Shown here one piece after another: positions 2,181-19,388 of a stretch of 64,000 bases of DNA. How positions within the stretch are numbered: position 1 is the stretch's first letter; each line of letters begins with the position of its first letter. The DNA is taken from assembly GCF_002104515.1 (NCBI RefSeq), contig NZ_NBOE01000010.1:62001-126000 (forward strand). Direction: 5' to 3'. The stretch is from Colwellia polaris. GTDB lineage: Bacteria; Pseudomonadota; Gammaproteobacteria; Enterobacterales; Alteromonadaceae. Under the pieces are notes generated by a model. That model saw only the letters and a program-made list of their open reading frames with translations. It ran no database searches and was not told the DNA's origin. Position numbers and translations under genes: made by a program.

Positions 2181-2313
2181 TTACCTTAGATGTAGAGCTA
2201 ATATGCTTAATTAAGTTTGTAATAAGTAATATTAAGTTGGATGTTATTATTTGTAATACTTTTATTTATCAATTGCTTGGGTCTTTATTTTCTGGGTGGC
2301 TGTACGTTTGAAA

Positions 2314-2345
2314 AAGGCGTATGTTTTATATGAAAACTACGCCTT
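2314..2345 (-). terminator. rho-independent terminator of the DsbB-like operon
   Basis: AAGGCGTA-GTTTT pairs with AAAAC-TACGCCTT (13 pairs, one bulge). On the minus strand it is followed directly by TTTTT. It lies 24 bp after the stop of the DsbB-like gene. Confidence 0.75.
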
Positions 2346-2368
2346 GTCTTGATATTAAGTGCTGTGAT

Positions 2369-2779
2369 TTAAATAACTTTGGCAGATGTTTTAGTTGCTG
2401 TAACAGCCAAGTAAGTCAAACCAATAATACCTGTTAATGCAAAGGCCGATAAAATAAATGGGTCAATCAGCAAGTTATCTTTAAATTCAAAGGTACCTGC
2501 TGATATTTTTTTCCAGCCCATAAAGTGCTGATTAGCGGCCACTGTTGCGCCAAAAAAACCAATCACTAAAGCAAAATATTTGCCTACCCAATGTGTAACC
2601 GCGGGCGTTATTAATAATAAACCTAAAAGGCCAATTACTGAGCGCTGAACTCTACAATAGGGGCAGACATAAACGATGCCCGATAGGTCTGTGCTCCACG
2701 CAGCTATTGAAATAACAATAGCTATTAAACCGACTATTTTAATATGTGTAGAGTAGGTGGTTAAGTTTAAAATGTTCAT
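2369..2779 (-). CDS. small DsbB-like / quinone-type thiol membrane protein
   Basis: A 136-residue protein with about four hydrophobic segments (about residues 12-30, 48-65, 67-85 and 108-126). After the first segment comes VCPYCRVQR, which resembles the CxxC motif with trailing arginine of DsbB, the inner-membrane protein that passes electrons from thiols to quinone. There are no other cysteines, so the second periplasmic pair of classic DsbB is absent. Its ATG is preceded by GGAAAG. It follows the DUF2938 gene by 33 bp on the same strand and ends at a terminator, so the two probably form one operon next to a divergent LysR gene. Calling it DsbB-like is inference from the motif and topology. 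Confidence 0.55.
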   Translation of the reverse strand: MNILNLTTYSTHIKIVGLIAIVISIAAWSTDLSGIVYVCPYCRVQRSVIGLLGLLLITPAVTHWVGKYFALVIGFFGATVAANQHFMGWKKISAGTFEFKDNLLIDPFILSAFALTGIIGLTYLAVTATKTSAKVI

Positions 2780-2812
2780 GGGTATTGCTTTCCTACGTTA
2801 ATTTTTTTTGAA

Positions 2813-3295
2813 TTATGCTAACACAAGGGCGGTTAAAAACATGCCAAGGCCAAATATGGTGTGTCCGACAAAGCTTTTAATGCGCGTTACAGTCGGGTTA
2901 GGTGTTTTTGCACCGGCCATACCTGCGCCCATGCCTGGCATCATTATAAAAAAGGGGGCAACTATGCCAAACCACGAAACAAGCAATGTAGGTAGTATGG
3001 TTGGAAAATCAAGCCATTGGGTGTTAACACACACCATTAATATTAAGCCATACACTATGCCTATTAGGTAATGTACAACCCAACCAATACCAAGCTCACC
3101 AGCTATTTTTTCGGCTTTAGTTAGCGCAGGCTGATAAAATTGCCCCGACTTCATATGGCCTACCCAGCGACCGACTAATCGCCAATTTGTGGCGGGTAAA
3201 GCAAAAAACTTAGTGAGTAAGCACGCGTAAATATCTAACACTATTGTGCCCCCTATACCTATTAATATAAAAGTATAGATAGAGTCGTTGATCAT
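2813..3295 (-). CDS. DUF2938 family membrane protein
   Basis: A 160-residue integral membrane protein with four predicted helices (about residues 7-28, 72-90, 98-120 and 140-158). WRLVGRWVGHM, FFIMMPGMGAGMAGAKTPNP and the closing SFVGHTIFGLGMFL are features I associate with DUF2938. No biochemical role is known to me. The ATG at 3295 has GGGAGA about 9 bases upstream. It is divergent from the LysR gene across 167 bp that contain an inverted repeat, suggesting LysR control of this gene and the DsbB-like gene behind it. Confidence 0.75.
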   Translation of the reverse strand: MINDSIYTFILIGIGGTIVLDIYACLLTKFFALPATNWRLVGRWVGHMKSGQFYQPALTKAEKIAGELGIGWVVHYLIGIVYGLILMVCVNTQWLDFPTILPTLLVSWFGIVAPFFIMMPGMGAGMAGAKTPNPTVTRIKSFVGHTIFGLGMFLTALVLA

Positions 3296-3408
3296 GTGTT
3301 GTGTCTCCCGACGATAGGTAAATTGGTAGGCGTTTTACAGCTATGTATACATGTTACAAATAGCGAAGCGCGTAGACTTGCCTATGTAATGTGATAATAT
3401 TACCAAAA

Positions 3409-3431
3409 CACCATTATGAACACTAATGGTG
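3409..3431. promoter_or_regulatory. candidate LysR-type operator in divergent intergenic region
   Basis: A perfect inverted repeat, CACCATTA-N7-TAATGGTG, between the DUF2938 gene and the LysR gene. It contains the T-N11-A pattern typical of LysR-type binding sites and lies 31 bp upstream of the LysR start. Confidence 0.5.
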
Positions 3432-3462
3432 AAAGCTGGATTTGGAATGAATTTAAATCATA

Positions 3463-4347
3463 ATGCTTGAGCGTAATCATCTACACATTATTAAAGAGGT
3501 TAATCGCCTTAAAAGCGTGACCGCCGCGGCCGAAAGTTTACACCTAAGCCAGTCGGCTGTTAGCCATACTATTGCTAAATTAGAGCGCCGCTTTGGCGTT
3601 AAACTGTGGCACCGTAAAGGCAATACACTGGTGTATTCTCAGGCGGGGCTTTATTTACTTTCGCTTGCTGAAAAAATGCTGGTTGAATTTGAATATGCCG
3701 AGCGAGTATTGCAAGAGTTTGCCCAAGGCCGCCGAGGAATAATGCGCATAGGAATGGAGTGCCACCCGTGTGAGCAATGGCTAATGGGTAAAATTCAGCA
3801 GTTTTTAAAAGCATGGCCAGAGGTAGACGTAGAAATAAAAAGCGCCTTTAGGTTTGATGGCGTTGCAGCGCTAAAAGCCAACGAAATAGATGTGCTAATA
3901 ACCCCCGACCCCTTAAATACAGACGGTTTACACTTTAGGTCGGTGTTTAACTACAATTTATGTATTGTAGTGAGCGAGCAAAACCCGCTTTACAATAAAG
4001 CGTTTGTTACAGCACAAGATCTCGAGAACGAAATACTGTATACCGTGCCCGTAGGTTACAACCGATTAGATGTATATACCCGATTTTTAGACCCCGCTAA
4101 CGTGCAACCTAAACGCAGAGTACCGATAGAAACCACCGAAATGATGTTGCAACTAGTGTCGGCTAATCGCGGCGTGGCAGTGTTACCCGAGTGGCTAGTG
4201 TCATCACACGAAAGCCGTTTAGGCATAAAAGGCATCAGCATAGGTAATAAAGGGCTGCAGAAAAGTGTTAATGTAGGCGTGCGCGAGGACGACTTACAGC
4301 TTGATTATGTAAAAGGCTTTATCGCATCAACGCGTTCGAATGTGTAA
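3463..4347 (+). CDS. LysR-family transcriptional regulator, MetR-like
   Basis: A 294-residue LysR regulator. Residues 1-60 form the winged helix-turn-helix (SVTAAAESLHLSQSAVSHTIAKLERRFG). The effector domain carries MECHPCEQWL, FRFDGVAALKANEIDVLITPD and a YNRLDVYTRFLDPANV stretch that parallel MetR, the homocysteine-responsive regulator of methionine genes. No met gene is adjacent, so the true target may be the divergent DUF2938/DsbB-like pair. The last 55 codons and some downstream sequence recur as a decayed copy near 10.0-10.3 kb, and the RND export operon lies between the two copies. Confidence 0.85.
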   Translation: MLERNHLHIIKEVNRLKSVTAAAESLHLSQSAVSHTIAKLERRFGVKLWHRKGNTLVYSQAGLYLLSLAEKMLVEFEYAERVLQEFAQGRRGIMRIGMECHPCEQWLMGKIQQFLKAWPEVDVEIKSAFRFDGVAALKANEIDVLITPDPLNTDGLHFRSVFNYNLCIVVSEQNPLYNKAFVTAQDLENEILYTVPVGYNRLDVYTRFLDPANVQPKRRVPIETTEMMLQLVSANRGVAVLPEWLVSSHESRLGIKGISIGNKGLQKSVNVGVREDDLQLDYVKGFIASTRSNV

Positions 4348-4440
4348 ATGGCTTTACTGTTAATCATTGCGAGGTGAAAGCGTAGTAATAATGGAGTAAG
4401 TATTAACTTTAGTTGTAAGTTCGGAGCGAGTGTAGATAAA

Positions 4441-4472
4441 AAAGGGGATTATTGATTATCATTAATCCCTTT
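4441..4472 (+). terminator. hairpin downstream of the MetR-like gene
   Basis: AAAGGGGATTA pairs with TAATCCCTTT with one bulge. It lies about 95 bp past the LysR stop and lacks a clear T-run, so termination is only likely. Confidence 0.35.
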
Positions 4473-4534
4473 CTGCTGGTTAATGATCACGAAATAATTA
4501 GCTGTTGTTTTTAGCTGCACCAGGTATCGAATTC

Positions 4535-4569
4535 GACGGATAAGTAATCCTCGTAGGCTCTTATCCGTC
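4535..4569 (-). terminator. hairpin at the 3' end of the export operon
   Basis: GACGGATAAG and CTTATCCGTC form a perfect 10-bp stem just after the stop of the outer-membrane gene. No strong T-run follows on the minus strand, so it may serve as a processing or stability hairpin instead. Confidence 0.45.
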
Positions 4570-4576
4570 TGAAAGT

Positions 4577-5800
4577 CTAAAAATACCACTCTACAGCTAG
4601 TTGCATGTGGTCATCGTTTTTAACAAAATATAACGCGTCAGTTGTTTTTGTACTTTGAAATAAACGCAGGTCTAAACTCACCTTTACACTTTCACCAAAA
4701 CGGCGGTTAGCCTCTACAATAAAGCTAAATGCATTGTGGTGTAGATCAGCACCTAATCCCATTAAAAACTCACTACTTTGTACATCATTAAATGCAATAC
4801 GACTACCAAAAAACACATCGTCTTGTATATTAGCACCTGGCTCGTTAACGCTGCCTTCACCACGAGAGTCCCAACCATATTCAACTAACAGGCCTAGATC
4901 AGCATTAGTATCAAACACGCCAACATAAGTGTATTCAAAGCCACCTTGTAATGCCCAAAAATCATCATCATCGGTTGTGCGGAAAATAGTTTCGAATTTC
5001 CATAACCAATCATCAATTGTTGCTTGAACATCGAGACCAAATTGATCCATTTGGTTATAATATTGCTTAAGCTCTACTTTATTACCTACCGTAACCGGAG
5101 TAAGAATTGGGTCTCGATTAGTACCATGGAACCAATGAACACCAAAATCAAAAACATCAACGCTATGCGACCAACGTACAGCAGCATCAAGATGCTTATC
5201 TTCAGCAGAAGATTGATAAGTGACGTTTCTGTCACTTACAACAGGTCCACGCAAACGCCCATTACTACCCGAAAATGTTCTTTCTCTAAAGCCTGGCAAT
5301 AAATATAAGTCGACAATTCCCCACTCTTTTACAAGCGATAAATTAACCATAAGTTGTCCAAGTTTATCTTCGCCGTCGAAATCTTCAACATTATCTGTTT
5401 GATTGATAACATCGACTAAATGTTGAAACTCTGTTACGCCCCAAAACTCTTTACGAATACCCGCTCTTAATTCCCAGTTATCACCAGCATGTATATAAGA
5501 AAATTCACGAATATCGCCATGGCTACGTTCATCATCACGTTCATCTTGGCGATAGAAAGGCTTGAATAACACACTATCATCACCGTTATTCCAGCTCCAA
5601 TAAAGTTCAGGCTCAACTAATACTGATATTTGTGTGTGTTCTAGTTGCTCTGGACTGTTACCTTTTTCAGAAAAAACTCGTTGCTCAACGCCTATTCTCC
5701 CTGAAAGCTCAAATTCAGCGGCGTTTGTTACCTGAGGTAACAAAACGCCATTGAGCGCGAGTATGCCAGACAATAATAACTGTTTATTGTTGATGCTCAC
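4577..5800 (-). CDS. outer-membrane beta-barrel protein of the RND export operon (DUF1302-like)
   Basis: A 407-residue exported protein. A signal peptide is evident (hydrophobic core LLLSGILALNGVLLPQV, cleavage near TNA-AEF). The remainder alternates hydrophobic and polar residues, is rich in aromatic residues, and ends in AVEWYF; a terminal phenylalanine is the usual barrel-assembly signal. Barrels of a DUF1302-like type commonly accompany RND/LolA-like export cassettes; the exact family is inference. It starts with GTG at 5800, preceded by AAGGTAGAG, and lies 8 bp after the LolA-like gene, so it is the last gene of that operon. It may be the outer-membrane acceptor or exit for whatever the RND pump moves. 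Confidence 0.7.
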   Translation of the reverse strand: MSINNKQLLLSGILALNGVLLPQVTNAAEFELSGRIGVEQRVFSEKGNSPEQLEHTQISVLVEPELYWSWNNGDDSVLFKPFYRQDERDDERSHGDIREFSYIHAGDNWELRAGIRKEFWGVTEFQHLVDVINQTDNVEDFDGEDKLGQLMVNLSLVKEWGIVDLYLLPGFRERTFSGSNGRLRGPVVSDRNVTYQSSAEDKHLDAAVRWSHSVDVFDFGVHWFHGTNRDPILTPVTVGNKVELKQYYNQMDQFGLDVQATIDDWLWKFETIFRTTDDDDFWALQGGFEYTYVGVFDTNADLGLLVEYGWDSRGEGSVNEPGANIQDDVFFGSRIAFNDVQSSEFLMGLGADLHHNAFSFIVEANRRFGESVKVSLDLRLFQSTKTTDALYFVKNDDHMQLAVEWYF

Positions 5801-5808
5801 GCTTATCT

Positions 5809-6621
5809 CTACCTTGCTCGTTTTAATGTGTTTGTATTAAAGTCACCGTCAACTAAACCTGTTTTGAAAGCGTAATTACTCCACTTAAGTTCAGTACTTT
5901 TACCGCTTTGATGATTAGTCATTAAACCACTCGCCGGGCGCCAATACTTATCTAAGTACTGCTTGAAGTCTGTGTATGATAGTGTTTTTAATAAGGCGTT
6001 TTTTCGATCATAAAAATCAACCTTTTGTACGCGATACTCGGCTTTATCAATCCATACAATACGACGTGTATAACCTGAATTTTCATCGACTGGAAATTGC
6101 TCAACCATAAAACTATCAAGACCATTAATTTTTTCATCGCCTAAGTAGTTATAACGGTATTTATCAACTTCAAATGAACTTAAATCTTCAAATGAAAACT
6201 CAGAGCCCATAAAAGGACCTGACTTATTGCGAGATGAAATACGCTTAACGCGCTTTAACGAAGGTAAGTACAACCATTGGTCATCATTTCCAACAACATG
6301 AGAAAAACTCAAAAATGACGTTCCTTTTACATCCCTAGGTTTATTAAAAACGGTTAAACTTTTATCACCATCATCTAACAACTCAAGGGTTTTATTTTTA
6401 ATTTCACGGATACTTTCTTGACCCTGTTTATTACGCAGTATCATTAACATATCTGATGTACTATCTGTCCAACCGGTATCACGTAGCTTAGCTTCTTGTG
6501 AAATCTCAAGCCCCAAACGTTGTGCTTCTTCTTTTGAAAGTGGTGCTGCGTTAATATTAAATGTGCAAAGTAATAAAGTGGTAATTGCAACCGCTTTCGT
6601 CGTAAATAATTTTTGTAACAT
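5809..6621 (-). CDS. periplasmic LolA-like protein (outer-membrane lipoprotein-sorting family)
   Basis: A 270-residue exported protein related to the outer-membrane lipoprotein-sorting/LolA-like fold that accompanies RND transporters. It has a signal peptide (MLQKLFTTKAVAITTLLL, cleavage near INA-AP), then SFLSFSHVVGNDDQWLYLPS, KRVKRISSRNKSGPFMGSEF and a C-terminal half with RRIVWIDKAEYRVQKVDFYD, typical of the family's open half-barrel. I chose the ATG at 6621 because GGAGA stands 7 bases upstream and the signal peptide starts there. A longer frame to 6660 overlaps the RND stop and lacks this site. It probably carries a hydrophobic substrate between the inner-membrane pump and the outer membrane. 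Confidence 0.8.
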   Translation of the reverse strand: MLQKLFTTKAVAITTLLLCTFNINAAPLSKEEAQRLGLEISQEAKLRDTGWTDSTSDMLMILRNKQGQESIREIKNKTLELLDDGDKSLTVFNKPRDVKGTSFLSFSHVVGNDDQWLYLPSLKRVKRISSRNKSGPFMGSEFSFEDLSSFEVDKYRYNYLGDEKINGLDSFMVEQFPVDENSGYTRRIVWIDKAEYRVQKVDFYDRKNALLKTLSYTDFKQYLDKYWRPASGLMTNHQSGKSTELKWSNYAFKTGLVDGDFNTNTLKRAR

Positions 6622-6659
6622 ATTAATTTCTCCAGTAAATTTTTTTAAATCAAATACCA

Positions 6660-8984
6660 TTAAGTATTAGATTCTTGAAAGGGTAATTGCACTTCTTTAA
6701 CTTGGCTTTTGCGTTCAAGTAACATAAGAAGCGGGGGTAAAAATAAGAAATCAACCACAAGCGCAATGAAAATAGTAATTGCAGTGAGCAGCCCCATATC
6801 GGCATTCGGACTAAAAGTTGATTGTGCCAGCACACTAAAGCCAACCACTAAAACTAAAGTAGTTGTCCACAACGCTGTTCCAACATGTTCAAATGCGTAG
6901 CGTACAGCCGCTTTAGGATCGGCTTTTTTTTCTCGACGTGCATGTAAGTATTTACTTAAAAAGTGAACCGTATCATCGACTACAATGCCAAGTGTCATGC
7001 CCACAACAACCGAGATACTCAAACCAACTTGTCCAACAAGTAGCCCCCAAGTACCAAATGCCACACCAGCAGGGATAAGATTAGGTAGTAAGCTGATTAA
7101 ACCATAACGCCAGCTTTTAAGTGCAAAGCCCAAAATAGCCGAAATAAGTAAGAAAGCGAGTGTTGTGCCCAGTAACATACTGTGAATACTGCGTTGACCA
7201 ATATGGGCAAACATTAAACTTGGGCTTGCAATTATGATGTTGTATTGCGAAGCATTGTTAGCAAACCAGGCATTAATACGAGTTTCTAATTCAATTAACT
7301 CATTGCTTGTCAGGTTTTTAAAGGTACCTACAATTTTAGTGGATGATTTATCTACATTTAATTGATTATTTAAATCTAAACCGTACGGCAATGACATTTC
7401 ATAAAGTAATAAGTATTGTGCTGCCATTTCCTGATCGGTAGGTAATTTATACCAAGTTGGATCATCACCATGCATATTTTTATTTAAACGTTTAAGCGTA
7501 TCTGTAATCGTATTCACATGGTCTGTTTCTGGCTGAGATCGTAACCAATCGGTGAAATTAGATAGCTTTTTCAGATACTCTGGATTATTAATTCCGCTAG
7601 AAACACCTGTTTCAATCGACATTTCTAGTAATGTCATGCCTGAAAGGTTTTCTTGCATAAAATCAGTGTCTGCACGAAAGGGTACAGACTCATCAAAGTA
7701 TTTTACAAAGTCATCATTTAACTCATTCTGTGTAATAAATACGGTTGACCCGATAATCAATATACTCGTTAATGGCAATAATATACGTCTTTTAGCAATA
7801 ACAAAGTTAGCTAACGACATCATCATTGTGTTTTTACCTTCTTTGGTCGACTTAACTTTGATAGGTAATACCGTTAGTAAGGCAGGAAAAACAGTAATAG
7901 ATAGAATAAACGCTAGCATAACGCCAAGTGCAACCATATTCCCTAAGTCGTGAAATGGCGGCGAATCAGAAAAGTTCATTGTTAAAAAACCAATGGCGGT
8001 TGTGATACTGGTTAAGAAAATGGGTTGAAAATTAAGTTGCAAACTGCGCTTTATTGCGGTTTTTTTATCAGCGCCTCGGCGCATTTCATAAAACATTGAT
8101 GACAGAATATGAATACAGTCGGCAACAGCCAGGGTTAAAATCATCGTTGGTGCAGAAGATGATGGACCGGTTAAGTAAACGCCCATCCAGCCTGCAACTC
8201 CCATCGTTGCGGCAATACTTAGCATAATAATAAGAACTGTCGCAAACGTTCCAGAAATTGTGCGTAACATTAAACCGATAAAAACAATAACCGCCAAAAA
8301 CATTAGTGGTACAAGAGTAGAGCCGTCACTCATTGCCACTTCTGCAGAAGTGTTATTCATGACGACCATTCCAGAAAGGTGTATTTCTATATCAGGGTGC
8401 TTCGCTAAAAAGTCGGTAACTAATGGTTTAACAAATGCCCCAACTTCAGGTTGCTCAGTATTTAAATCAATACCTGGAAATTGAACGGTAACATTTACAA
8501 CAGATACATGCCCTTGTGGCGATATAACTTTATTAACTAATAAAGGTTCATTAATCGCGATTGTTTTAATTTTTTCTAAAGCTGCTGCCGTTAAGTTAGC
8601 GGTGTCCATAACTAAATCTTCAACAATCATGTCGTCATCTTCAGCATGGGTGTACTGAAAATTAGTCACTGAATCGACACGGGTAGAGTAAGGTATTTGC
8701 CAACTTTGCTTAGTTAACGTTTTTATTGCTGCTAAGTGTTTTTTACTAAATACATTCCCGTCTTTAGGTACAACAATAAAAGAAACATTGTCACTTTTAT
8801 TGTAAACATTTTGCATTTTATCGTAGGCCACTAGTTGTGGATTATCTTCGCCGAAGAACACTCTATAATCAGCTTTAAAAACTATATTTTTAACGCCAGC
8901 TCCTGCTGCTAGTGTAATCAATAGTGTAAGTAGTATGACTCCAAAGGGATATTTCCCGATAAAATCAAACAGTTTATCTTTCAT
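6660..8984 (-). CDS. RND superfamily exporter (MMPL/HpnN-like)
   Basis: A 774-residue inner-membrane transporter made of two similar halves. Each half has one N-terminal helix (residues about 8-27 and 395-412), a large periplasmic loop, and a bundle of five more helices. LAVADCIHILSSMFYEMRRGADKKTAIKRS in the first half and GIVVDDTVHFLSKYLHARREK in the second are the paired helix-4 regions with aspartates expected for proton-driven RND/MMPL proteins. Start chosen at 8984, where GGAG lies 6 bases upstream. A frame open 9 codons further simply translates the operator at 8998-9010. It is transcribed after tetR and followed by the LolA-like and barrel genes. The substrate is unknown; relatives move hopanoids, lipids and similar hydrophobic compounds. 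Confidence 0.88.
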   Translation of the reverse strand: MKDKLFDFIGKYPFGVILLTLLITLAAGAGVKNIVFKADYRVFFGEDNPQLVAYDKMQNVYNKSDNVSFIVVPKDGNVFSKKHLAAIKTLTKQSWQIPYSTRVDSVTNFQYTHAEDDDMIVEDLVMDTANLTAAALEKIKTIAINEPLLVNKVISPQGHVSVVNVTVQFPGIDLNTEQPEVGAFVKPLVTDFLAKHPDIEIHLSGMVVMNNTSAEVAMSDGSTLVPLMFLAVIVFIGLMLRTISGTFATVLIIMLSIAATMGVAGWMGVYLTGPSSSAPTMILTLAVADCIHILSSMFYEMRRGADKKTAIKRSLQLNFQPIFLTSITTAIGFLTMNFSDSPPFHDLGNMVALGVMLAFILSITVFPALLTVLPIKVKSTKEGKNTMMMSLANFVIAKRRILLPLTSILIIGSTVFITQNELNDDFVKYFDESVPFRADTDFMQENLSGMTLLEMSIETGVSSGINNPEYLKKLSNFTDWLRSQPETDHVNTITDTLKRLNKNMHGDDPTWYKLPTDQEMAAQYLLLYEMSLPYGLDLNNQLNVDKSSTKIVGTFKNLTSNELIELETRINAWFANNASQYNIIIASPSLMFAHIGQRSIHSMLLGTTLAFLLISAILGFALKSWRYGLISLLPNLIPAGVAFGTWGLLVGQVGLSISVVVGMTLGIVVDDTVHFLSKYLHARREKKADPKAAVRYAFEHVGTALWTTTLVLVVGFSVLAQSTFSPNADMGLLTAITIFIALVVDFLFLPPLLMLLERKSQVKEVQLPFQESNT

Positions 8985-8997
8985 AACTTCTCCATAA

Positions 8998-9010
8998 TGA
9001 CGAAACGTCA
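8998..9010. promoter_or_regulatory. TetR operator O1 (TGACGAAACGTCA)
   Basis: A 13-bp near-perfect palindrome that ends 13 bp before the RND start codon, next to its Shine-Dalgarno. It is identical to the site at 9065-9077 and nearly identical to the one upstream of tetR. Confidence 0.8.
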
Positions 9011-9064
9011 CTTTATAGTGTTAAAAAATGGCCCCAACGACCAGTAAATTCATACAATCTTAAG

Positions 9065-9077
9065 TGACGAAACGTCA
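9065..9077. promoter_or_regulatory. TetR operator O2 (TGACGAAACGTCA)
   Basis: Second identical copy of the 13-bp palindrome, 67 bp from O1 centre to centre, in the gap between tetR and the RND gene. The pair brackets a region containing TATAAA on the minus strand (near 9011-9016), a possible -10 element. Confidence 0.8.
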
Positions 9078-9177
9078 TCTAAGTGCTTAAAAAAAACGGC
9101 TTGAAACTGCCGAGTTCTATTTATTTATTTATTTATGTGTATATATTCAGACAACATACACGTTATAAAATTATCTG

Positions 9178-9933
9178 TTAACCAAAGTTAAAATCTCTGC
9201 CAAGCGACTTCAATAATGCTAACTCGCTAGGAAATACGGTTTTAATTGCCTTGACCAATGTTGCCTTATAATTGCCATCTTTCGTTAATGGTAGCCATTG
9301 CAAACCATCAAAAATCAAATTATTTTGATTATATAACTCTTGTTCAACTATCATCCCGATACTGCCAGAACATTGTTCAATTTCTGTAGCTAATAGTGAA
9401 ATAGCGCCATAACTCGCCGACCAAGATGAAAACGAAACCTGCAACGCCGTCATATGAGAAGGGATAACCAATTCTTTTGCAGATACTGCATCATCAATAA
9501 TGCTGATCACGGTCCCCATTAACCTTTCTTCTAAATGATCTTTTTCGGCAATGCGTTCTTCGCTAGCTTTAGCATGAACATATGGGCTGCGGGCACATTG
9601 AACTGACTGAAAGAGCGCAGGATGCAAAACCGCATAAATAAGGTATGAGACATGTAATAGAAGCATACGTCCGCGAGAACAGCCATCAAATTTCGCAGCA
9701 CGCATAAATAAATCAAGCATGATATTAGTTGCGTGATTACTTACCGCTAGAAATAGATCTTCTTTACCCAGAAAGTGCTTATAAACCGTACCTTTTGAAT
9801 ACGACACAGCCGCAACTACTTTATCCATGGTGATATTTTCAACACCGGATTTACCAATAAGAGCAATCGTAGCATCGATTATATCTAGCTCTCTTGCCTG
9901 TAAGTCTGCTTTATCAAGTACTTTAGGGAACAT
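9178..9933 (-). CDS. TetR-family transcriptional regulator of the export operon
   Basis: A 251-residue TetR regulator. The N-terminal helix-turn-helix spans about residues 15-60, with MDKVVAAVSYSKGTVYKHF as recognition helix. The C-terminal ligand-binding part is poorly conserved, as is usual. It is transcribed in the same direction as, and just upstream of, the RND-LolA-barrel genes. Palindromes TGACGAWWCGTCA stand upstream of tetR itself (9942-9954) and twice before the RND gene, so self-regulation plus operon repression is a strong inference. The inducing ligand is probably the exported compound or a related hydrophobic molecule. Confidence 0.9.
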   Translation of the reverse strand: MFPKVLDKADLQARELDIIDATIALIGKSGVENITMDKVVAAVSYSKGTVYKHFLGKEDLFLAVSNHATNIMLDLFMRAAKFDGCSRGRMLLLHVSYLIYAVLHPALFQSVQCARSPYVHAKASEERIAEKDHLEERLMGTVISIIDDAVSAKELVIPSHMTALQVSFSSWSASYGAISLLATEIEQCSGSIGMIVEQELYNQNNLIFDGLQWLPLTKDGNYKATLVKAIKTVFPSELALLKSLGRDFNFG

Positions 9934-9941
9934 ATCTCTCG

Positions 9942-9954
9942 TGACGATTCGTCA
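9942..9954. promoter_or_regulatory. TetR operator O3 upstream of tetR (TGACGATTCGTCA)
   Basis: The third copy of the palindrome, differing from O1/O2 only in the central bases, begins 9 bp upstream of the tetR start codon. It supports autoregulation. Confidence 0.8.
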
Positions 9955-10036
9955 TTAATTGCGGTAATTTACATTTTAAACATAAAAGTGTCAATAACTG
10001 GCTTTGAAAAACATGTGCGTAAATTTAACGAAATTA

Positions 10037-10219
10037 GTGCTAACCAATGCAGCGTTACCTGAGTGGTTAGTCTCGTCGCACGAAAGTCGTTTAGGTATAA
10101 AAGGCACTGGCATAAGCAATAAAGGGCTGAAGAAAAGGGTCAATGTTGGTTTGCGGAATGACGATTTAGGGCTTGATTATGTTAAAGGGTTTATAGAGTC
10201 AACGCGCTCGAATGTGTAA
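10037..10219 (+). pseudogene. decayed 3' fragment of a MetR-like LysR gene
   Basis: From about 10052 the plus strand encodes LPEWLVSSHESRLGIKG through STRSNV. This matches the last 55 residues of the LysR protein at 3463-4347 with 45 identities, in the same orientation. Homology also continues past the stop (ATGGCTTT, then TAATAAT and GTAAGTATTAACTT) to about 10295. No helix-turn-helix or other upstream LysR sequence is present, so this is a fragment and not a gene. The intact gene and this remnant flank the TetR/RND export operon, which suggests insertion at, or duplication of, the gene's 3' end. Confidence 0.85.
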
Positions 10220-10295
10220 ATGGCTTTGTTGTTAAATGTAGTGAGGGGGAAGCGCTGTAATAATAGGGTAAGTATTAACTTGAGCTGTTAGATTT

Positions 10296-10538
10296 GATTG
10301 ATAGGGAGTAGTCAAATTTGACAGGATATTTGCCAAATTGCAGACCTTTTTATGTTCTTTTTAAAGCGAAAACTAACAACACAAAGTCGACGGAAGAGAA
10401 TTCGAACGGGCAGACCATATTGAGCCAAAAACCATCACCCGATTGAGCAAACATGACTGACCGTTGAGGGCGAGTAACGTACCTTGAAAGTTGGTAACCT
10501 GATGGTCTGATCTAAGCTTGTTGCGGTTCTTGAAGTCA
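10296..10538. other. non-coding stretch with a separated inverted repeat
   Basis: I see no gene here. CAGACCAT near 10413-10420 and ATGGTCTGA near 10502-10510 form a separated inverted repeat, and the sequence is less AT-rich than neighbouring gaps. It could be the remains of a mobile element, but no transposase coding is visible. Confidence 0.3.
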
Positions 10539-10585
10539 TTATGGGTAGCCTGTTAATTAAGAAAGTGTATCTGACCATACTTAAT
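10539..10585 (+). repeat. 47-bp direct repeat, left copy
   Basis: Begins TTATGGGTAGCCTG and ends TACTTAAT. It matches 13308-13354 at 41 of 47 positions in the same orientation. The two copies bracket exactly the AhpD-like, DsbA-like and LysR genes. Confidence 0.8.
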
Positions 10586-10671
10586 TTTTGTTGGGTTAGG
10601 TTAGGTTATTTGGCTTCACTGATTAATGATCTCAGTACAACAGGGATACTGAGACCATTTTCTGTAAATAC

Positions 10672-11229
10672 TTATGACATTTTCTTCTGCCATGCCAATT
10701 TTTGGAATGGTGTATCAAGGGGTGTTTTTGCAATGTGATTCACATAGTTACTGATCACCTTTTGAGAAAGTCCCAAAATAATGTCCAATATTTGACGTTG
10801 CGCATAACCAGCTTCGAAAAACTTAGCAACTGCCGCATCATCCACATTGCCACGATTACGCACGATATTCAGTGTCATGTCTTGTAGTGCTTGTAGCTTT
10901 GCTGTTGGCATTGGCTTTTGATCTCTCAGCGCTTCGGTCAGCGCCGGATCAACCTTCATCATACCTGCAATAACCGTATGCGCAGGTACGCAGTAAGTAC
11001 AACCATGCTCAACATTAATTGTCTGCCATACCACCGTTAGTTCCTCTGCATCGAAAGAAGAAGCAATAAATAGGTCATTAAGTTCGCGGTAAGCAATAAG
11101 TAATTCTGGCGACTCAGCTAACACACCATGTAAGTTAGCAATCATGCCATTTTGTTTAAGTGATGCTTCCAGAAGTGGTTTGCTTTTTTCTGGTGCTGTT
11201 TCAAGGTTATGGATAGTAAATGTAGTCAT
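10672..11229 (-). CDS. AhpD-like / carboxymuconolactone decarboxylase family protein
   Basis: A 185-residue cytoplasmic protein of the CMD/AhpD superfamily. The core motif EHGCTYCVPAHTVIAG (near residues 73-88) holds the CxxC and downstream histidine used by AhpD-type alkylhydroperoxidases. FEAGYAQRQILDIILGLSQKVISNYVNHIAKTPLD is the usual closing helix pair. It probably reduces peroxides using thiols. It follows the FrnE-like DsbA gene by 63 bp on the same strand, so a thiol-redox pair under the divergent LysR regulator is likely. The ATG at 11229 is the only sensible start. The substrate and reductant are unknown. Confidence 0.85.
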   Translation of the reverse strand: MTTFTIHNLETAPEKSKPLLEASLKQNGMIANLHGVLAESPELLIAYRELNDLFIASSFDAEELTVVWQTINVEHGCTYCVPAHTVIAGMMKVDPALTEALRDQKPMPTAKLQALQDMTLNIVRNRGNVDDAAVAKFFEAGYAQRQILDIILGLSQKVISNYVNHIAKTPLDTPFQKLAWQKKMS

Positions 11230-11292
11230 TTTTAATAATCTCTTAATTGGTTTGTTTGTTTGCTGAAGTAGCGATCATTGAGCCAAGTAGGC

Positions 11293-11934
11293 CTAATGAG
11301 CCATAGCTTCAGTTAATATTTGTTTATAGCCTTCAATGGTTTGGCTACCGTTAACTCTTAATTTCTGATTAAAAAACATTGTTGGTACAGAGGAAATACC
11401 CACGGCCTGCCACTTTGAAACCTCCGCTTCAATGTAACTTTGTATATCTTGGTTATTAAACACATCTGCCGAGTCATTTAATTCTAAGCCAACAGCTCGC
11501 ATTTCTTGCTCTAGCACCTCTGTTTTAGAGATGTCTTTTTTCTCCGTAAAAAAGGCAGTAAATAATCGCTCCTTTAATGCTGTTTGCTTACCAAGCTGTC
11601 TGGCATATTCCAAAGTTACATGTGCTTTATAGGTATTTATCACTCGTGTGTTGTCATCAAGGTTAAACGTCAGGCCATTGTCTTTAGCCATTGCAGTGAT
11701 CCGCTCACGATTAAGGAGACTCTCTTCCAAACTACGATTGTATTTTCTCGCACCATAGTCGTTATTGTTTTCACCTTCTTGTGGCATATCAGGGTTTAGA
11801 AAGTATGGGTGCCAAACAATGTCTACCTTATCTTGCAAGCCTGTTTCTGCTATTGCTTGCTTAAGTCGTTTATAGCCAATGGCGCACCACGGGCAAACCA
11901 CATCTGACACAAAATCAATTCTAATTTTTTCCAT
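11293..11934 (-). CDS. DsbA-family oxidoreductase, FrnE-like
   Basis: A 213-residue thioredoxin-fold protein without a signal peptide, so cytoplasmic. DFVSDVVCPWCAIGYKRL near residues 6-23 is the FrnE/HCCA-isomerase-like active site with CPWC. SSVPTMFFNQKLRVNGSQ near the C-terminus is the cis-proline segment, and GYKQIL follows. FrnE relatives act as dithiol oxidoreductases or isomerases under oxidative stress. I chose the ATG at 11934 because AGAGAGGCGG precedes it by a few bases; the frame opens 12 codons further without such a site. It probably forms a two-gene operon with the AhpD-like gene and is divergent from a LysR gene. Confidence 0.88.
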   Translation of the reverse strand: MEKIRIDFVSDVVCPWCAIGYKRLKQAIAETGLQDKVDIVWHPYFLNPDMPQEGENNNDYGARKYNRSLEESLLNRERITAMAKDNGLTFNLDDNTRVINTYKAHVTLEYARQLGKQTALKERLFTAFFTEKKDISKTEVLEQEMRAVGLELNDSADVFNNQDIQSYIEAEVSKWQAVGISSVPTMFFNQKLRVNGSQTIEGYKQILTEAMAH

Positions 11935-12171
11935 GTTAACCGCCTCTCTATATTGAATGTAATTAATCATTGAGCTTATTGTGGCGTAATTACGAAAAGA
12001 GATAATCAGAGATATTTACCTATCATTGTGGTAAAAAAGGAAACAATGAAAGTTTATGGTGTAATATGCTCACCTTGAAACTTAGCCTAAAGTGCACTTG
12101 AAAATGATTGCGGTAATAGCGGCATCACTCCAGATAGCCAAAAACAAATAAACTCAAGCAGGACGATTAAA

Positions 12172-13074
12172 ATGGATATTGCCAAAAGATTGGATCTCTT
12201 CTTAGATGTAGTAAAACAAGGCTCTTACACTAAAGCAGCCAATTTAAGACAGATAGACCGCTCAGCCTTATCAAAGCAGATTATGATTTTGGAAAAGGAG
12301 TTGGGCATTCGTTTACTTAACCGTTCTACGCGCTCTTTATCACTCACCGAGGCAGGCAAAGAAGTGCTAAAACAGGCCGAATCGGTCAGGCAAACTGTTT
12401 CGGATACCTATCGAATTGTGGAAAGTTTTAACAACGAACCTAAAGGGTTGTTACGTATTACCAGCCCCACCTTATTTGGCAAGTTGTACGTGCATAAAGT
12501 TGTTAAAAAGTTTATGCGTACTTACCCCGAAGCGCATATTCATCTCACGCTGGATAATCAAAAGTTAAAACTCATTGAAGAGCGTTACGACTTGGCTTTT
12601 AGAATCGGTAACCTAGGTGATTCTAACCTAATCGCTAAAAAGCTAGCAGATAACCATCCTGTGATATTAGCTTCAGAAGACTTTATTAAAGAACATGGCC
12701 AACCGAAAACACCCGAAGAATTGATTCAACTACCTGCGGTATTTTATGCCAGTGACGGTTTGGTAGTGAATCGCATTCCAATGATTGAAAGCCTGAGCAG
12801 TGGTGAGGCTAAATCTTGGGAATTTCAGGGGCATTATCGGGTGAATGAGCCAGAGTTGATTATTGATGCCGTGCGTTCAGGCTTGGGCTTTGCGATGGTG
12901 GGGCGCTATATGCTGGATAAACCGCTGAGTGAGTTAGGTTTAGTTCCACTGTTAACGAACTATCAGTTTCCGGATTATTTTGGAGGAATTTATGCCGTAT
13001 ATCCTCATCGCAATCCCACTCTGCTAGTCAATAAATTTATTGAAATGATGCAGGATGAGATTGGTGACATTTAG
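12172..13074 (+). CDS. LysR-family transcriptional regulator
   Basis: A 300-residue LysR regulator. The helix-turn-helix covers residues 1-60 (GSYTKAANLRQIDRSALSKQIMILEKELG) and the effector domain follows, with LRITSPTLFGKLYVHKVV and YDLAFRIGNLGDSNLIAKKL, as in the common LysR group that lies beside redox enzymes. It is divergent from the DsbA/AhpD operon across about 240 bp that include a CGTAATTACG palindrome at 11985-11994, so it probably controls that operon. It ends before the right 47-bp repeat. Confidence 0.88.
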   Translation: MDIAKRLDLFLDVVKQGSYTKAANLRQIDRSALSKQIMILEKELGIRLLNRSTRSLSLTEAGKEVLKQAESVRQTVSDTYRIVESFNNEPKGLLRITSPTLFGKLYVHKVVKKFMRTYPEAHIHLTLDNQKLKLIEERYDLAFRIGNLGDSNLIAKKLADNHPVILASEDFIKEHGQPKTPEELIQLPAVFYASDGLVVNRIPMIESLSSGEAKSWEFQGHYRVNEPELIIDAVRSGLGFAMVGRYMLDKPLSELGLVPLLTNYQFPDYFGGIYAVYPHRNPTLLVNKFIEMMQDEIGDI

Positions 13075-13307
13075 TAGGTACAATGGCCGTTTATAGATTA
13101 AGGAATTGCGTGCTATTACTAGAGTAAATAAAACTTTGGCGACTGTTAGTGATAAGTAGTTAATGTCAGGATTGTTAACGACTGACTTCTCTTTACGTCA
13201 GTTGAAAGCCAAAAGAGGGCGTAAGCTTTGTTATACCTGAACATATTAAGGACGATTTTAACCCAAGTAACTAGATATTTGAGTGTTCGAGTTGGTCATT
13301 GCAATTG

Positions 13308-13354
13308 TTATGGGTAGCCTGATCTTTAATAAAGTGTACCTGACCCTACTTAAT
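13308..13354 (+). repeat. 47-bp direct repeat, right copy
   Basis: Second copy of the repeat at 10539-10585 (41 of 47 identical). It lies in the 300-bp gap between the LysR gene and the amine oxidase stop; I see no other feature in that gap. An internal CTTTAATAAAG element is nearly palindromic. Confidence 0.8.
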
Positions 13355-13374
13355 ATAAGCTCAAGTATCAGCCA

Positions 13375-14496
13375 TTACAAATCACGCTTTAACATTTTTA
13401 AGTAATGCTCAACACCTATGTTTGCTGCATCAACTGCACCGGCAACATAGCCCGGAAATTGCACCGACCATTCACTACTAATACCTACTAAATTTTGATG
13501 CCACGGGCCATTTTGCGCTGTTATGTCAGGTGCTGGCGCATGTGCGCTCGCTGCGTGTGTATCTAGCGACGTTGCTGTGAGTGGGTCTTGTGCCCAGTCT
13601 TTAATAATATCGGCTTTTGGTGTGGCGGCTTGTGCGCCAAAAAGCCTGACCAATTGCGCTCTACAATGTGTGATTAAATCTTCATTACTAATGCGTTTTC
13701 GACCATAGGCAGGTATACCAATAAAGCCAAATAATGCGGCTTGGCCTTCTGGGTTTGATGCGTCGTGTATTTCAGCCATTGGCCCAACGCTGCTGCGGGC
13801 GCTGCCCGATAATTCTTCCTCGCGCCAAAATGGCTTGTTGTATACAGCAATATACTTAGCGTGCGGTGCCATCCAGGTTGCGGTATTCTGCCACTGTGTT
13901 AGTAAGTCGCTTGGCAATGCTGGGGTAAATGTTATTTGGCTTACGGCTAAGCGTGGCGGCAGCGCAAGCATTACATGCTCCACACTTACCTGATTATTTA
14001 CTTGGTTATTTGCTGTATTTGAGGTGCTAAAGTTAACTTCAATATTGTCGTGTTGTTGGGTAATTGACTTTACCAAAGCACCGATAACTATTTGTTTGTT
14101 GTTAAGTTTTGCATGTAAGGCATTAATGAGTATGCCCATGCCACCTTTTAACCGCATAGACGTAGGAGAATGCGTATAACCGGGCATTGCTGTTGGCACT
14201 TGCGTATGTGAGCGTTCTACTAAGGTATTGCCTTGCTCGTACTGGGCAAATGTTTCTAGGTTTAGCGTTTTAATAATGGCATTTAATTGCGGCTGAAACT
14301 CTGGCCAAAACCAAGTTGGGCCAAGATCAAAGTTATTTGTTGTAGCTTGCGAATGATGCGTAAAGTCCATTATGCGCCCACCTAATTGGTCTCTGGCTTC
14401 AAGCAATATGTAATCGGTAATGCCTTGTTGTTCTAACTGGTAAGCGGCATACAAGCCGCTAAGCCCACCGCCTATGATCGCAATTTTTGTACGCAT
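13375..14496 (-). CDS. FAD-dependent amine oxidase (flavin monoamine oxidase family)
   Basis: A 373-residue flavoprotein. The N-terminus MRTKIAIIGGGLSGLYAAYQ is the FAD-binding Rossmann motif, followed by LLEARDQLGGRI, the amine-oxidase GG motif. VEHVMLALPPRLAVSQI and the closing SEWSVQFPGYVAGAVDAANIG are the second FAD-contact segments. It is shorter than typical monoamine oxidases (about 450), chiefly in the substrate domain. It likely oxidises an amine to an aldehyde with hydrogen peroxide release. The cupin gene ends 3 bp upstream, and GGAGG at that junction serves as its ribosome site, so the two are translationally linked. The substrate is unknown. Confidence 0.85.
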   Translation of the reverse strand: MRTKIAIIGGGLSGLYAAYQLEQQGITDYILLEARDQLGGRIMDFTHHSQATTNNFDLGPTWFWPEFQPQLNAIIKTLNLETFAQYEQGNTLVERSHTQVPTAMPGYTHSPTSMRLKGGMGILINALHAKLNNKQIVIGALVKSITQQHDNIEVNFSTSNTANNQVNNQVSVEHVMLALPPRLAVSQITFTPALPSDLLTQWQNTATWMAPHAKYIAVYNKPFWREEELSGSARSSVGPMAEIHDASNPEGQAALFGFIGIPAYGRKRISNEDLITHCRAQLVRLFGAQAATPKADIIKDWAQDPLTATSLDTHAASAHAPAPDITAQNGPWHQNLVGISSEWSVQFPGYVAGAVDAANIGVEHYLKMLKRDL

Positions 14497-14499
14497 TAT

Positions 14500-15174
14500 T
14501 TAGCCTCCACAACCTATATTGTTAAAATGACCTACTTTAAGGTAAATTTTAGCGCTATTGCTTCCCGCTGATATTAACGCTTTGCTATTGCTTGGCAGCC
14601 TTAGCCAGCTTCCTTTTGAATATTCTACCTCGTTATGTACTACGCTGCCGCTCAGTACAAATAACTCTAAGGCATTATGTGCATTTACATTATCAAATAG
14701 GGGCTGTTGCGGTGCTAACTTTACCAGTTTAGTTACTTCATTATCATTTTTATAAAGCGGGCATATAGTGCGGTTGTTTTGTGTTATCCACGTATCCGGA
14801 TCGTGTGTATTTATGCGCACTGGGGCGGTTTCTGTTACGCACATTTGCCACAGTTTTACAAAAATTGTTGCGCCACTTTTACTCTTAGGTGCATGTAAAG
14901 ACCCTGGCGGATTTCGTAAATAAAAGCCTTGTGGGTAGTCGCCCGACTCATCTGAAAAGGTGCCCGAAAGTACCATGATTTCTTCTCCGCCTGGGTGAGC
15001 ATGACTTGGAAAAGTAGACTCAGGCGCGTAGCGTACTACGCTTGTTGCTCTGGCTTTTTCAGCGCCTATTCTGTCGAGCATTACGCGCTCAACACCCGCC
15101 TGAGGCGATGTTTGCCAACTATATTGACTTGGCAGCATTAAAGCGTGTTGTGAAAAATCTGAATTGACTCGCAT
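14500..15174 (-). CDS. two-domain cupin protein (ChrR-like cupin)
   Basis: A 224-residue protein with two tandem cupin units. The first (about residues 45-105) has FPSHAHPGGEEIMVLSGTFSD, carrying the His, His and Glu ligands for a metal. The second (about residues 145-215) has NAHNALELFVLSGSVVHNE and a WLRLPS strand but fewer metal-type histidines. The arrangement resembles the cupin of ChrR anti-sigma factors, but no zinc-binding anti-sigma domain is seen, so it may be a free-standing metalloenzyme or sensor. It is upstream of the amine oxidase with a 3-bp gap and is surely co-transcribed. Confidence 0.78.
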   Translation of the reverse strand: MRVNSDFSQHALMLPSQYSWQTSPQAGVERVMLDRIGAEKARATSVVRYAPESTFPSHAHPGGEEIMVLSGTFSDESGDYPQGFYLRNPPGSLHAPKSKSGATIFVKLWQMCVTETAPVRINTHDPDTWITQNNRTICPLYKNDNEVTKLVKLAPQQPLFDNVNAHNALELFVLSGSVVHNEVEYSKGSWLRLPSNSKALISAGSNSAKIYLKVGHFNNIGCGG

Positions 15175-15195
15175 TTATCCAACCTAAATAAAATA

Positions 15196-15221
15196 AGAGC
15201 AATAATGTATGTTATTGCTCT
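15196..15221. other. 10-bp perfect hairpin upstream of the cupin gene
   Basis: AGAGCAATAA and TTATTGCTCT pair perfectly around a 6-base loop. It stands between the dispersed repeat at 15225-15433 and the cupin start, so it may be a regulatory or terminating hairpin. Confidence 0.4.
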
Positions 15222-15224
15222 ATG

Positions 15225-15433
15225 ATACCAATCCGCACTAATACTTAATCATTTTGCGGGGCTAAACGTGTCGCTACCTGCGTTAAAAAATTCTCATTTA
15301 CGACTGCATGGATGCAGAAGGTAGAGCAATGCAGGAGCAATTGCCGAGAACAACTAAATAGCGAATTTTTTGCCTAACTATCAACACGTTTCTCCAACCT
15401 CAAAATAGATCACTTAATTAAGCGAATTGGTAT
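15225..15433. mobile_element. MITE-like palindromic repeat, family C
   Basis: A 209-bp non-coding unit beginning ATACCAATCCGC and ending GCGAATTGGTAT, so its ends are inverted copies. Inner pieces such as TAAACGTGT against ACACGTTT, and AAAAAATTC against GAATTTTTT, also pair, so the whole unit can fold on itself. No coding frame is present. It fills most of the gap between the SDR and cupin genes. Only one copy is in this window. Confidence 0.55.
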
Positions 15434-15468
15434 AAATTTACGCCCTTTGAGGGCTTTAAAATTACGTA

Positions 15469-16242
15469 TTAATTACGACCAGCCATTACACCGCCGTCAA
15501 TATCCCATACTGCACCCGTTACCCAAGCGGCTTTGTCGCTGAGTAAAAACGCAATGGTATTGGCTACATCTTCACTTGTACCTACACGACCAATTGGGTG
15601 GAAGCTGTTAAAACCTTGTAGCGCATCGTTTACTTCGGCTTTAGGGATAAAACCTTCATAAATTGGCGTTTGTACAACCGCTGGCGATACTGCATTAACG
15701 CGAATATTGTGTGCTGCTAATTCCATTGCTAAATGTTGAGTTAGCGCATGTAAACCTGCTTTAGCCATTGAATACGCTGACGATGGTGTAGCGGCAATAG
15801 CTTGCTTACCCCACATAGAGCCTACATTAACAATGGCGCCGGCGCGTTTTGCTGCCACTAAATTAGCGGCGACTTTTTGAGTAATAAAAAACAAGGCACG
15901 GTTAATTTGCATGTACTGATCGTAATCAGCCGCTTCGTGCTCTAAAAATGGTTTAGGGAAAAACACACCGGCAGCATTTACCAGTAAATCGACGTCTGCG
16001 TGGTCTTGTGAAAGTGTGTTAATTAAGTTTTGCACGCCTTCATAACTGGTTAAATCAGCGGTTAACACCTCAACAGTGCCTAAAGCTGATAGCTGTTCTT
16101 TTGCTGCTTGGGCTTTTTCTTTACGGTGGCCAACAATGACAGCTTGGCCGCCTTGCTCTAAAATTAATCGAGCCGTTTCAAAACCCATGCCGCTAGTACC
16201 ACCAACAACGAGTAATTTTTTACCTGAAAATTGCTTAGTCAT
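15469..16242 (-). CDS. SDR-family oxidoreductase
   Basis: A 257-residue classical short-chain dehydrogenase/reductase. [12 protein letters not shown] (about residues 14-25) is the nucleotide-binding glycine motif. HRKE after the second strand suggests NADP preference. LVNAAGVFF, the catalytic serine in VGSMWGK, and the tyrosine-lysine pair in SAYSMAKAG are present. [12 protein letters not shown] ends the chain as usual. It is divergent from a GcvA-like LysR gene, the common arrangement in which the regulator controls the SDR. The substrate cannot be read from sequence. Confidence 0.9.
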
Positions 16243-16409
16243 GATTATTTCTCCAAGCGCTACTATGCGCTGTATTTGTTATATAAATAAAAGTATTGAG
16301 TTGCCTATAACAAGTAGCTTGCTGTTTGGCTTGGGAGGTATTTTTTACTTATTTACTTGCTTTAACAAACGAGATAATCTGAATCATCAATAAAGAAAAA
16401 GTTTATCGC

Positions 16410-17339: not shown

Positions 17340-17381
17340 AACTCAGCAGTATTTTTATAAATTACAGCAGTAAAGAAAATA

Positions 17382-17419
17382 TTTACCATGGTAAAAGATA
17401 ATCTCTGTGGTTAACCACA
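17382..17419. promoter_or_regulatory. twin 14-bp palindromes upstream of the AhpD-like/MFS operon
   Basis: Two perfect 14-bp palindromes, TTTACCATGGTAAA (17382-17395) and TGTGGTTAACCACA (17406-17419), are 24 bp apart centre to centre. They fall 75-110 bp before the AhpD-like start, where an operator would be expected. Which regulator binds is unknown; they do not resemble the TetR operator. Confidence 0.5.
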
Positions 17420-17493
17420 TTCATTCCCCGTAAGCTTCGCTCCAAGTTAGCCACTTTAATTACTTAAGTGGCGTTTAATTAGGAGTAAACATT

Positions 17494-18015: not shown

Positions 18016-18072
18016 ATATATCAACCATAACCCTCTTTTTAGCTCCTTTAATACTTTTAGGAAAGTGAAACC

Positions 18073-19302: not shown

Positions 19303-19388
19303 AAGCAAGTTTTACAAGTAAACTAGCTAGTGCCCTTTGTTATCGGCACTAGAATTTATGCAAACGTTAGGAAAGTGCGTAGGGTAAG

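What the first reader, a model, noticed from the sequence alone, without database searches (positions are those of the whole stretch)
3463..10295. Export operon lies between a LysR gene and a decayed copy of that gene's 3' end
The last ~165 bp of the MetR-like LysR gene, plus about 75 bp beyond its stop, recur in the same orientation at about 10.04-10.30 kb (45 of 55 residues identical). The interval holds exactly the tetR-RND-LolA-barrel operon. Direct copies flanking a block suggest site-specific insertion at a gene 3' end, with that end regenerated, or an old duplication. Only one copy is now full length.
Basis: partly seen in the sequence, partly recalled or inferred. Interest (0 to 1): 0.7.

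Follow-up and report, generated by a model that had tools for sequence, protein, structure and literature searches.

The report
Gene-tail scar in a swappable slot
A marine bacterium carries an export operon between a working regulator gene and the leftover tail of another version of that gene, most likely a scar of DNA swapping at a spot where related bacteria keep different genes; it is an ordinary but clearly readable case of genome remodelling.

Summary
Window 4177-4419 (end of a MetR-like LysR gene plus 72 nt past its stop) recurs at 10049-10291, 81% over 243 nt, with a complete tetR-RND-LolA-barrel operon between. The pair lies in a larger variable slot (about 4420-13355) before an amine-oxidase gene. 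The flanks are 89-95% identical to four Pseudoalteromonas-genus genomes, each with different cargo there. No empty site was found. The fragment is not a recent copy of its neighbour: it is as far from it (140/171 coding nt) as from orthologues in other species (142-145/171), with excess synonymous change. Three other genomes keep only a LysR 3' scar at this locus, with two further breakpoints. No recombinase was found in the proteins scanned. Best reading: a scar of a divergent allele, left when incoming LysR plus operon joined by homology on one side and illegitimately on the other, as proposed for Vibrio T6SS effector genes. The mirror-image event and an old duplication stay open. Modest interest.

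The parts
2378..4419 (.). Left conserved block, Pseudoalteromonas-like: DsbB-like gene (label recalled), DUF2938 gene, LysR gene and 72 nt downstream
   Evidence: 89-90% DNA identity to four genomes of the Pseudoalteromonas genus; DUF2938 by Pfam
3463..4347 (+). Intact MetR-like LysR regulator, 294 aa
   Evidence: Pfam HTH_1 and LysR_substrate; best NCBIfam model MetR, 200 bits, below its cut-off of 382
4177..4419 (+). Repeat R1, copy in the intact gene
4577..5800 (-). Outer-membrane-barrel-like protein, 407 aa
5809..6660 (-). LolA-like outer-membrane lipoprotein-sorting protein
   Evidence: Pfam LolA_like 3e-64
6660..9011 (-). MMPL/RND exporter, 783 aa
   Evidence: Pfam MMPL 2e-28; best NCBIfam model HAE3, below its cut-off
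8998..9077 (.). Two TGACGAAACGTCA palindromes, probable TetR operators; a third, TGACGATTCGTCA, at 9942-9954 before tetR
   Evidence: repeat family and sequence; operator role inferred
9178..9933 (-). TetR-family regulator of the operon
   Evidence: Pfam TetR_N 2e-12
10031..10296 (+). 3' fragment of a divergent allele of the same LysR gene (about 60 codons, no internal stop) with its downstream 72 nt; best-matched part 10049-10291
10285..10324 (+). Strong hairpin overlapping the end of the fragment; similar sequence in G237 and G449 at other loci, absent at the intact copy
10525..10585 (+). Repeat R2, left copy; a short repeat dispersed in the host genus
10672..11229 (-). Peroxidase-related/AhpD-like protein
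   Evidence: NCBIfam TIGR01926 at 5e-10, below its cut-off; no Pfam match
11293..11970 (-). DsbA-family (FrnE-like, recalled) oxidoreductase
   Evidence: Pfam DSBA 2e-32
12172..13074 (+). Second, different LysR-family regulator
   Evidence: Pfam
13294..13354 (+). Repeat R2, right copy; its end abuts the conserved right flank
13356..19277 (.). Right conserved block, Pseudoalteromonas-like, beginning with an amine oxidase gene (13375-14496, minus); 15224-15466 aligns only in part
   Evidence: 89-95% DNA identity to four genomes of the Pseudoalteromonas genus; Pfam Amino_oxidase

Best explanation
The slot between this LysR gene and the amine-oxidase gene is a place where accessory genes are exchanged. 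The fragment at 10031-10296 is the 3' scar of another, divergent allele of the same LysR gene. Proposed steps: (1) a lineage carried allele B, whose LysR had lost its 5' part, with the peroxidase-related/DsbA/LysR module behind it; (2) DNA with an intact LysR (allele A) and the self-contained tetR-RND-LolA-barrel operon came in, paired through conserved sequence upstream of or within LysR, and was closed on its other side by a joint without homology in front of the scar; (3) the scar now lies behind the new cargo and is decaying. Shown: the repeat, the variable slot, different cargo in four relatives, the divergence of the fragment, and LysR-only scars at the same locus in three other genomes. 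Inferred: the order of events, their polarity, and homologous-plus-illegitimate recombination as the mechanism.
For: Same flanks, different cargo in 5 of 5 genomes that hold this LysR intact at 89% DNA identity or more: the window and four genomes of the Pseudoalteromonas genus, slots of about 2.3-11.6 kb in those four. Fragment versus neighbouring LysR 140/171 coding nt, versus four orthologues 142-145/171, while the neighbouring LysR is 154-158/171 from those orthologues. dS involving the fragment 0.59-0.81, against 0.31-0.45 between the intact window gene and relatives and 0.20-0.28 among relatives, in the same stretch. 20 private changes on the fragment against 0-6 on the other five genes; 11 of the 20 synonymous against a neutral expectation of 26-28% (P = 0.005-0.011), so part of its divergence arose while it was a working gene. 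3' scars of the same gene at the same locus in G327, G458 and G459, beginning at ORF positions 874, 843 and 843 of 885, against 715 for the window. No recombinase in 14 of the 16 non-overlapping ORFs of at least 130 aa between 1906 and 19388; the other two were not scanned. G+C: operon 37.3%, equal to the window's core (37.3%), in a block of 42-43%; fragment 41.0%. A published model has the same anatomy (PMC5361080, passages read).
Against: No intermediate arrangement turned up in the searches made: LysR in 395 family genomes and 108 of the Pseudoalteromonas genus, the fragment in those 108, the operon in 395 family genomes, the second module in 108 and 395. The operon was not searched in all of the 108. 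Fragment and intact gene lose similarity at the same point, about 72-85 nt past the stop, which a site-specific core would also give. The 171-nt tree does not place the fragment (supports 15-45 around it). The synonymous excess rests on about 39 sites. The left block is only slightly more diverged from relatives than the right one (ratios 1.81 against 1.41 and 1.25), so separate origins of the two sides are not demonstrated. The flank expected behind a resident scar is missing.
Confidence: 0.5

Rival explanations
1. Mirror image: LysR allele A and the left block were resident, and a segment carrying the operon and/or the second module, with the 3' tail of a foreign LysR allele as a hitchhiking edge, was joined on the right by homology and on the left without it.
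For: The same anatomy; both flanks are closest to G404; the flank usual behind the LysR end is missing behind both window copies.
Against: LysR-only scars without an intact LysR exist as standing alleles in three genomes, which makes a resident scar simpler.
Confidence: 0.22
2. Old tandem duplication of the LysR gene, before the split of the species compared; one copy decayed and the operon landed between the copies.
For: The fragment is more diverged than any of the five intact genes are from each other and was under purifying selection for part of its history.
Against: None of the four genomes with an intact LysR shows a second copy or fragment, and in the three scar genomes the LysR DNA search found no intact gene.
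Confidence: 0.15
3. Site-specific island at the LysR 3' end whose integrase has been lost; the repeats are attachment-site relics.
For: Direct repeats at a gene 3' end; both copies lose similarity at the same distance after the stop; a hairpin lies at the joint on the fragment side.
Against: Copies 81% alike over 243 nt; no recombinase in the proteins scanned; scar breakpoints differ between genomes; the usual flank does not follow the distal copy; cargo in four relatives is not flanked by LysR ends.
Confidence: 0.08
4. Recent duplication of the neighbouring gene's own 3' end (a local copying event).
For: Position and orientation only.
Against: The fragment is no closer to its neighbour than to other species' genes (140 against 142-145 of 171 nt; downstream part 78% against 82-88%).
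Confidence: 0.03

Closest known systems
Hotspots of horizontal gene transfer without recognisable mobile elements, exchanged by recombination at flanking core genes (PMC5635113; abstract and passages read)
   Same: Conserved flanks, different cargo in each genome, no mobile-element enzyme in the proteins scanned
   Different: There the flanks are core genes of one species; here 4 of 108 genomes of the Pseudoalteromonas genus hold the LysR flank at full length, and the window's block lies in a genome of another genus. Recombination rates of the flanks were not measured here
Sequential displacement of T6SS effector genes in Vibrio cholerae (PMC5361080; passages read)
   Same: A new module joined through a homologous upstream anchor, with the old gene's 3' end shifted behind the new cargo
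   Different: No effector-immunity pair; the anchor is a LysR regulator and the cargo an export operon; one scar only; no ancestral arrangement found
Homology-facilitated illegitimate recombination (PMC3240628; start of the abstract seen in the listing)
   Same: One homologous and one non-homologous joint is the event inferred
   Different: Not shown here; competence of this organism was not examined
Genomic islands integrated at gene 3' ends by tyrosine recombinases (recalled)
   Same: Direct repeats at a gene 3' end
   Different: No integrase found, long and diverged repeats, variable scar breakpoints in relatives

Membership tests
Gene-exchange hotspot without recombinase | Different gene content between conserved flanks in related genomes | tested here: met
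   5 of 5 genomes with this LysR intact differ in the slot
Gene-exchange hotspot without recombinase | No integrase or transposase in the cargo | tested here: met
   Window: all 7 slot proteins scanned, and 14 of 16 non-overlapping ORFs of at least 130 aa in 1906-19388. Relatives: only 10 slot proteins scanned (Pfam 10, PADLOC 9 of them); the rest of their cargo was judged by eye
Gene-exchange hotspot without recombinase | Raised homologous recombination in the flanking genes | tested here: inconclusive
   Left/right divergence ratios 1.81 against 1.25-1.41; five genomes only
Site-specific island at a gene 3' end | Integrase gene in or beside the element | tested here: not met
   two of 16 ORFs in 1906-19388 not scanned
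Site-specific island at a gene 3' end | Near-identical att repeats with a fixed breakpoint | tested here: not met
   81% over 243 nt; scars in relatives start at ORF positions 843 and 874 against 715
Site-specific island at a gene 3' end | Empty site in relatives | tested here: not met
   4 of 4 genomes with intact LysR have cargo; of the 3 scar genomes, G327 and G458 have other DNA behind the scar and the G459 contig ends within about 0.4 kb
Displaced 3' end by anchored insertion (as proposed for T6SS loci) | 3' fragment of the anchor gene behind the new cargo, same orientation | tested here: met
Displaced 3' end by anchored insertion (as proposed for T6SS loci) | Fragment from a different allele than the intact gene | tested here: met
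   placement by tree unresolved, and an old duplicate would look alike
Displaced 3' end by anchored insertion (as proposed for T6SS loci) | Ancestral arrangement without the new module in a relative | tested here: not met
   none seen in the searches

The most novel reading that the evidence does not exclude
The LysR 3' end works as a recombinase-free stacking point: successive modules are added behind an intact LysR, each displacing the previous LysR tail, so that scars record the order of acquisition across Pseudoalteromonas and its neighbours, with the hairpin at the joint as a preferred break.
Probability: 0.1. Interest if true: 0.5.

Novelty: new member of a known kind. Interest (0 to 1): 0.28.

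Why it matters
It shows in one locus how an operon can end up beside a regulator gene with no integrase in sight and leave a readable scar, and that direct repeats at a gene 3' end need not mean a mobile element. If the stacking reading held, such scars could be used to order gene acquisitions at hotspots.

Tried and rejected
Recent local duplication: rejected on distances. Regenerated gene end by an integrase: not supported. Usual downstream flank behind either window copy: alignments within the range of shuffles (fragment side: 16, 262, 52 and 30 of 300 shuffles as good for G384, G404, G464, G399; intact side: 84 to 216 of 300). Placing the fragment by a tree: unresolved. A close source of the operon: best-scoring long matches 70-74% DNA in 395 family genomes; in plasmid records two partial matches of 66-75%. 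A close source of the second module: best 67-72%. RNA families in 1900-20500: none. A hairpin as a mark of scar alleles: strong in the window fragment and in G237 and G449 at other loci, but not significant in G458 or G459, so dropped as an argument. R2 as the end of a known transposon: suspected from memory only; no transposase recognised by eye in the ORFs of seven loci with copies, which were not scanned against family models; left open.

Rows set aside: the LysR-family hits of at most 44%; the 49 of 395 genomes with any match, of which only G384 and the window were used further (G150, 69%, noted only); the 11 of 108 with any match, of which the 4 long ones were used and G327 followed up, 9 of 108, of which 4 are the intact genes, 3 the scars and 2 (G237, G449) hairpin matches. 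Five of the seven loci (47-65% relatives) were used only in the tree; their surroundings were not examined.
Full report
Observation. The 3' end of the LysR gene at 3463-4347 and 72 nt beyond its stop recur in the same orientation (4177-4419 and 10049-10291, 243 nt, 81%). A whole-genome search with 4100-4440 finds only these two places, and randomised controls do not come near (score 251 against at most 32 in 100). The copy at 10 kb is a fragment of about 60 codons, open in frame from about 10031 with one 9-nt gap. Between the copies lie a TetR gene, an MMPL/RND exporter, a LolA-like protein and a barrel-like protein, all on the minus strand, with two TGACGAAACGTCA palindromes near the exporter start and a third near-palindrome before tetR. 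An operator role is inferred.

Surroundings. The window's genome (G000) belongs to a genus of which 17 genomes are held. In the other 16 the LysR protein finds relatives of at most 44% identity, and the LysR DNA finds only short partial matches, in 2 of 16. Full-length orthologues at 90-91% DNA identity occur in 4 of 108 genomes of another genus. Two of these are Pseudoalteromonas sp. P1-25 and P. atlantica NBRC 103033, by matching coordinates and, for P1-25, contig length, so I call that genus the Pseudoalteromonas genus. In the four genomes the DNA matching window 2378-4419 and 13356-19277 is 89-95% identical, and the slot between the LysR end and the amine-oxidase gene holds different genes each time: cupin-like, AhpC-like, NADPH-reductase-like and HxlR-like genes in P1-25; two genes with weak defence-model matches in P. 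atlantica; about 11.6 kb with an AraC-family regulator and acetyltransferase-like, oxidoreductase-like and other genes in G404; three genes without a Pfam or PADLOC match in G464. Names without a family search are read from the sequence. None of the four has the export operon in the slot or a second LysR end. In the window the slot holds the export operon, the LysR fragment and a second module (10672-13074) flanked by its own 61-nt direct repeats (80%). That second repeat is dispersed in the host genus: exact copies of a 17-base core lie in 4 of 17 genomes of the genus and in 0 of 23 other genomes searched.

The outer block. In 11 of 15 fetched sibling loci prfC and rimI lie 1.7-8.5 kb apart; in the other 4 rimI was not seen within the stretch fetched, and one sibling (G008) was not fetched. 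In the window they are about 17.4 kb apart with the Pseudoalteromonas-like block between them. I read the interval in two siblings: in G007 it holds a periplasmic-nitrate-reductase-like cluster (names recalled), in G012 one 285-aa ORF. So the block at about 2.4-19.3 kb appears foreign to this genus.

What the fragment is. Over 171 coding nt the fragment agrees with its neighbour at 140 positions and with the four orthologues at 142-145, whereas the intact window gene agrees with those orthologues at 154-158; in the 72 nt past the stop the fragment is 78% like its neighbour and 82-88% like the four relatives. Synonymous divergence is 0.59-0.81 in pairs with the fragment, against 0.31-0.45 for the intact window gene and 0.20-0.28 among relatives. 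It has 20 private changes, 11 synonymous and 9 not, against 0-6 on the other five genes; the synonymous share exceeds the neutral expectation (P = 0.005-0.011). So it spent part of its separate history as a working gene and part, it seems, as a decaying piece. It cannot be a recent copy of its neighbour. A short tree does not place it.

Scars elsewhere. In three further genomes of the Pseudoalteromonas genus (G327, G458, G459) the same locus keeps only the last 4 to 14 codons of LysR and the downstream flank, and the LysR DNA search found no intact gene in them. Their similarity to the LysR reading frame begins at position 874 (G327) and 843 (G458, G459) of 885, against 715 for the window fragment. 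In G327 the slot behind the scar holds a reverse transcriptase gene matching Drt4 defence models, split over two reading frames. The G459 contig ends soon after the scar, so its slot is not seen. Loss of the 5' part of this LysR with retention of the tail is therefore a recurring outcome here, with varying breakpoints, which argues against a fixed attachment site.

Mechanism. The simplest account is that an allele with a LysR scar received DNA carrying an intact LysR allele and the export operon, paired by homology on one side and closed without homology on the other. The operon's G+C (37.3%) equals the window's core and differs from the surrounding block (42-43%), while the fragment (41.0%) matches the block; this fits several arrivals from different sources but does not order them. 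The published model for Vibrio T6SS loci has the same anatomy, an anchored module with the old gene's 3' end shifted behind it (PMC5361080, passages read), and hotspots without recognisable mobile elements are described (PMC5635113, abstract and passages read).

Against this reading. No intermediate arrangement turned up in the searches made (LysR; fragment; operon; second module); the operon was not searched in all 108 genomes of the Pseudoalteromonas genus. Both copies in the window lose similarity at about the same distance past the stop, and the flank found downstream of the LysR end or scar in seven genomes of that genus follows neither copy in the window (in G399 that flank is itself displaced by about 390 nt). 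A strong hairpin overlaps the end of the fragment (z = -5.2) and recurs at other loci in two genomes, but the related scars in G458 and G459 do not fold significantly. The left block is slightly more diverged than the right one, which hints at but does not show separate origins. The mirror-image event and an old duplication remain open.

Verdict. The site-specific reading is not supported; insertion by exchange at a variable slot is. This is a new example of a known kind, of modest interest. Whether this particular slot is in print was not settled: one search for Pseudoalteromonas islands and hotspots found 38 papers with at least three of four terms, 8 were listed and none was opened.

Noticed in passing
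window 2378-19302: A block of about 17 kb, mostly 89-95% identical to Pseudoalteromonas DNA, lies between prfC and rimI in a genome of another genus; 11 of 15 sibling loci show 1.7-8.5 kb there, in G007 a nitrate-reductase-like cluster.
   Followed up: partly
window 10525-10585 and 13294-13354: A short repeat ending in CTGACC(C/A)TACTTAAT, dispersed in the host genus and, in G005 contig C10, repeated between consecutive small genes; no transposase recognised beside the copies read.
   Followed up: partly
window 10285-10324; L168:8460-8495; L169:8409-8446: A hairpin of 14-16 base pairs shared by the LysR fragment end and two other loci in the Pseudoalteromonas genus.
   Followed up: partly
L156:10577-12194: A Drt4-like defence reverse transcriptase, split over two reading frames, sits directly behind a LysR 3' scar in G327.
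   Followed up: no
L087:12285-12752: A small slot protein in G464 ends in NNQIHPTPKSGVAD, a tail that I recall from cassette-like genes; not tested.
   Followed up: no
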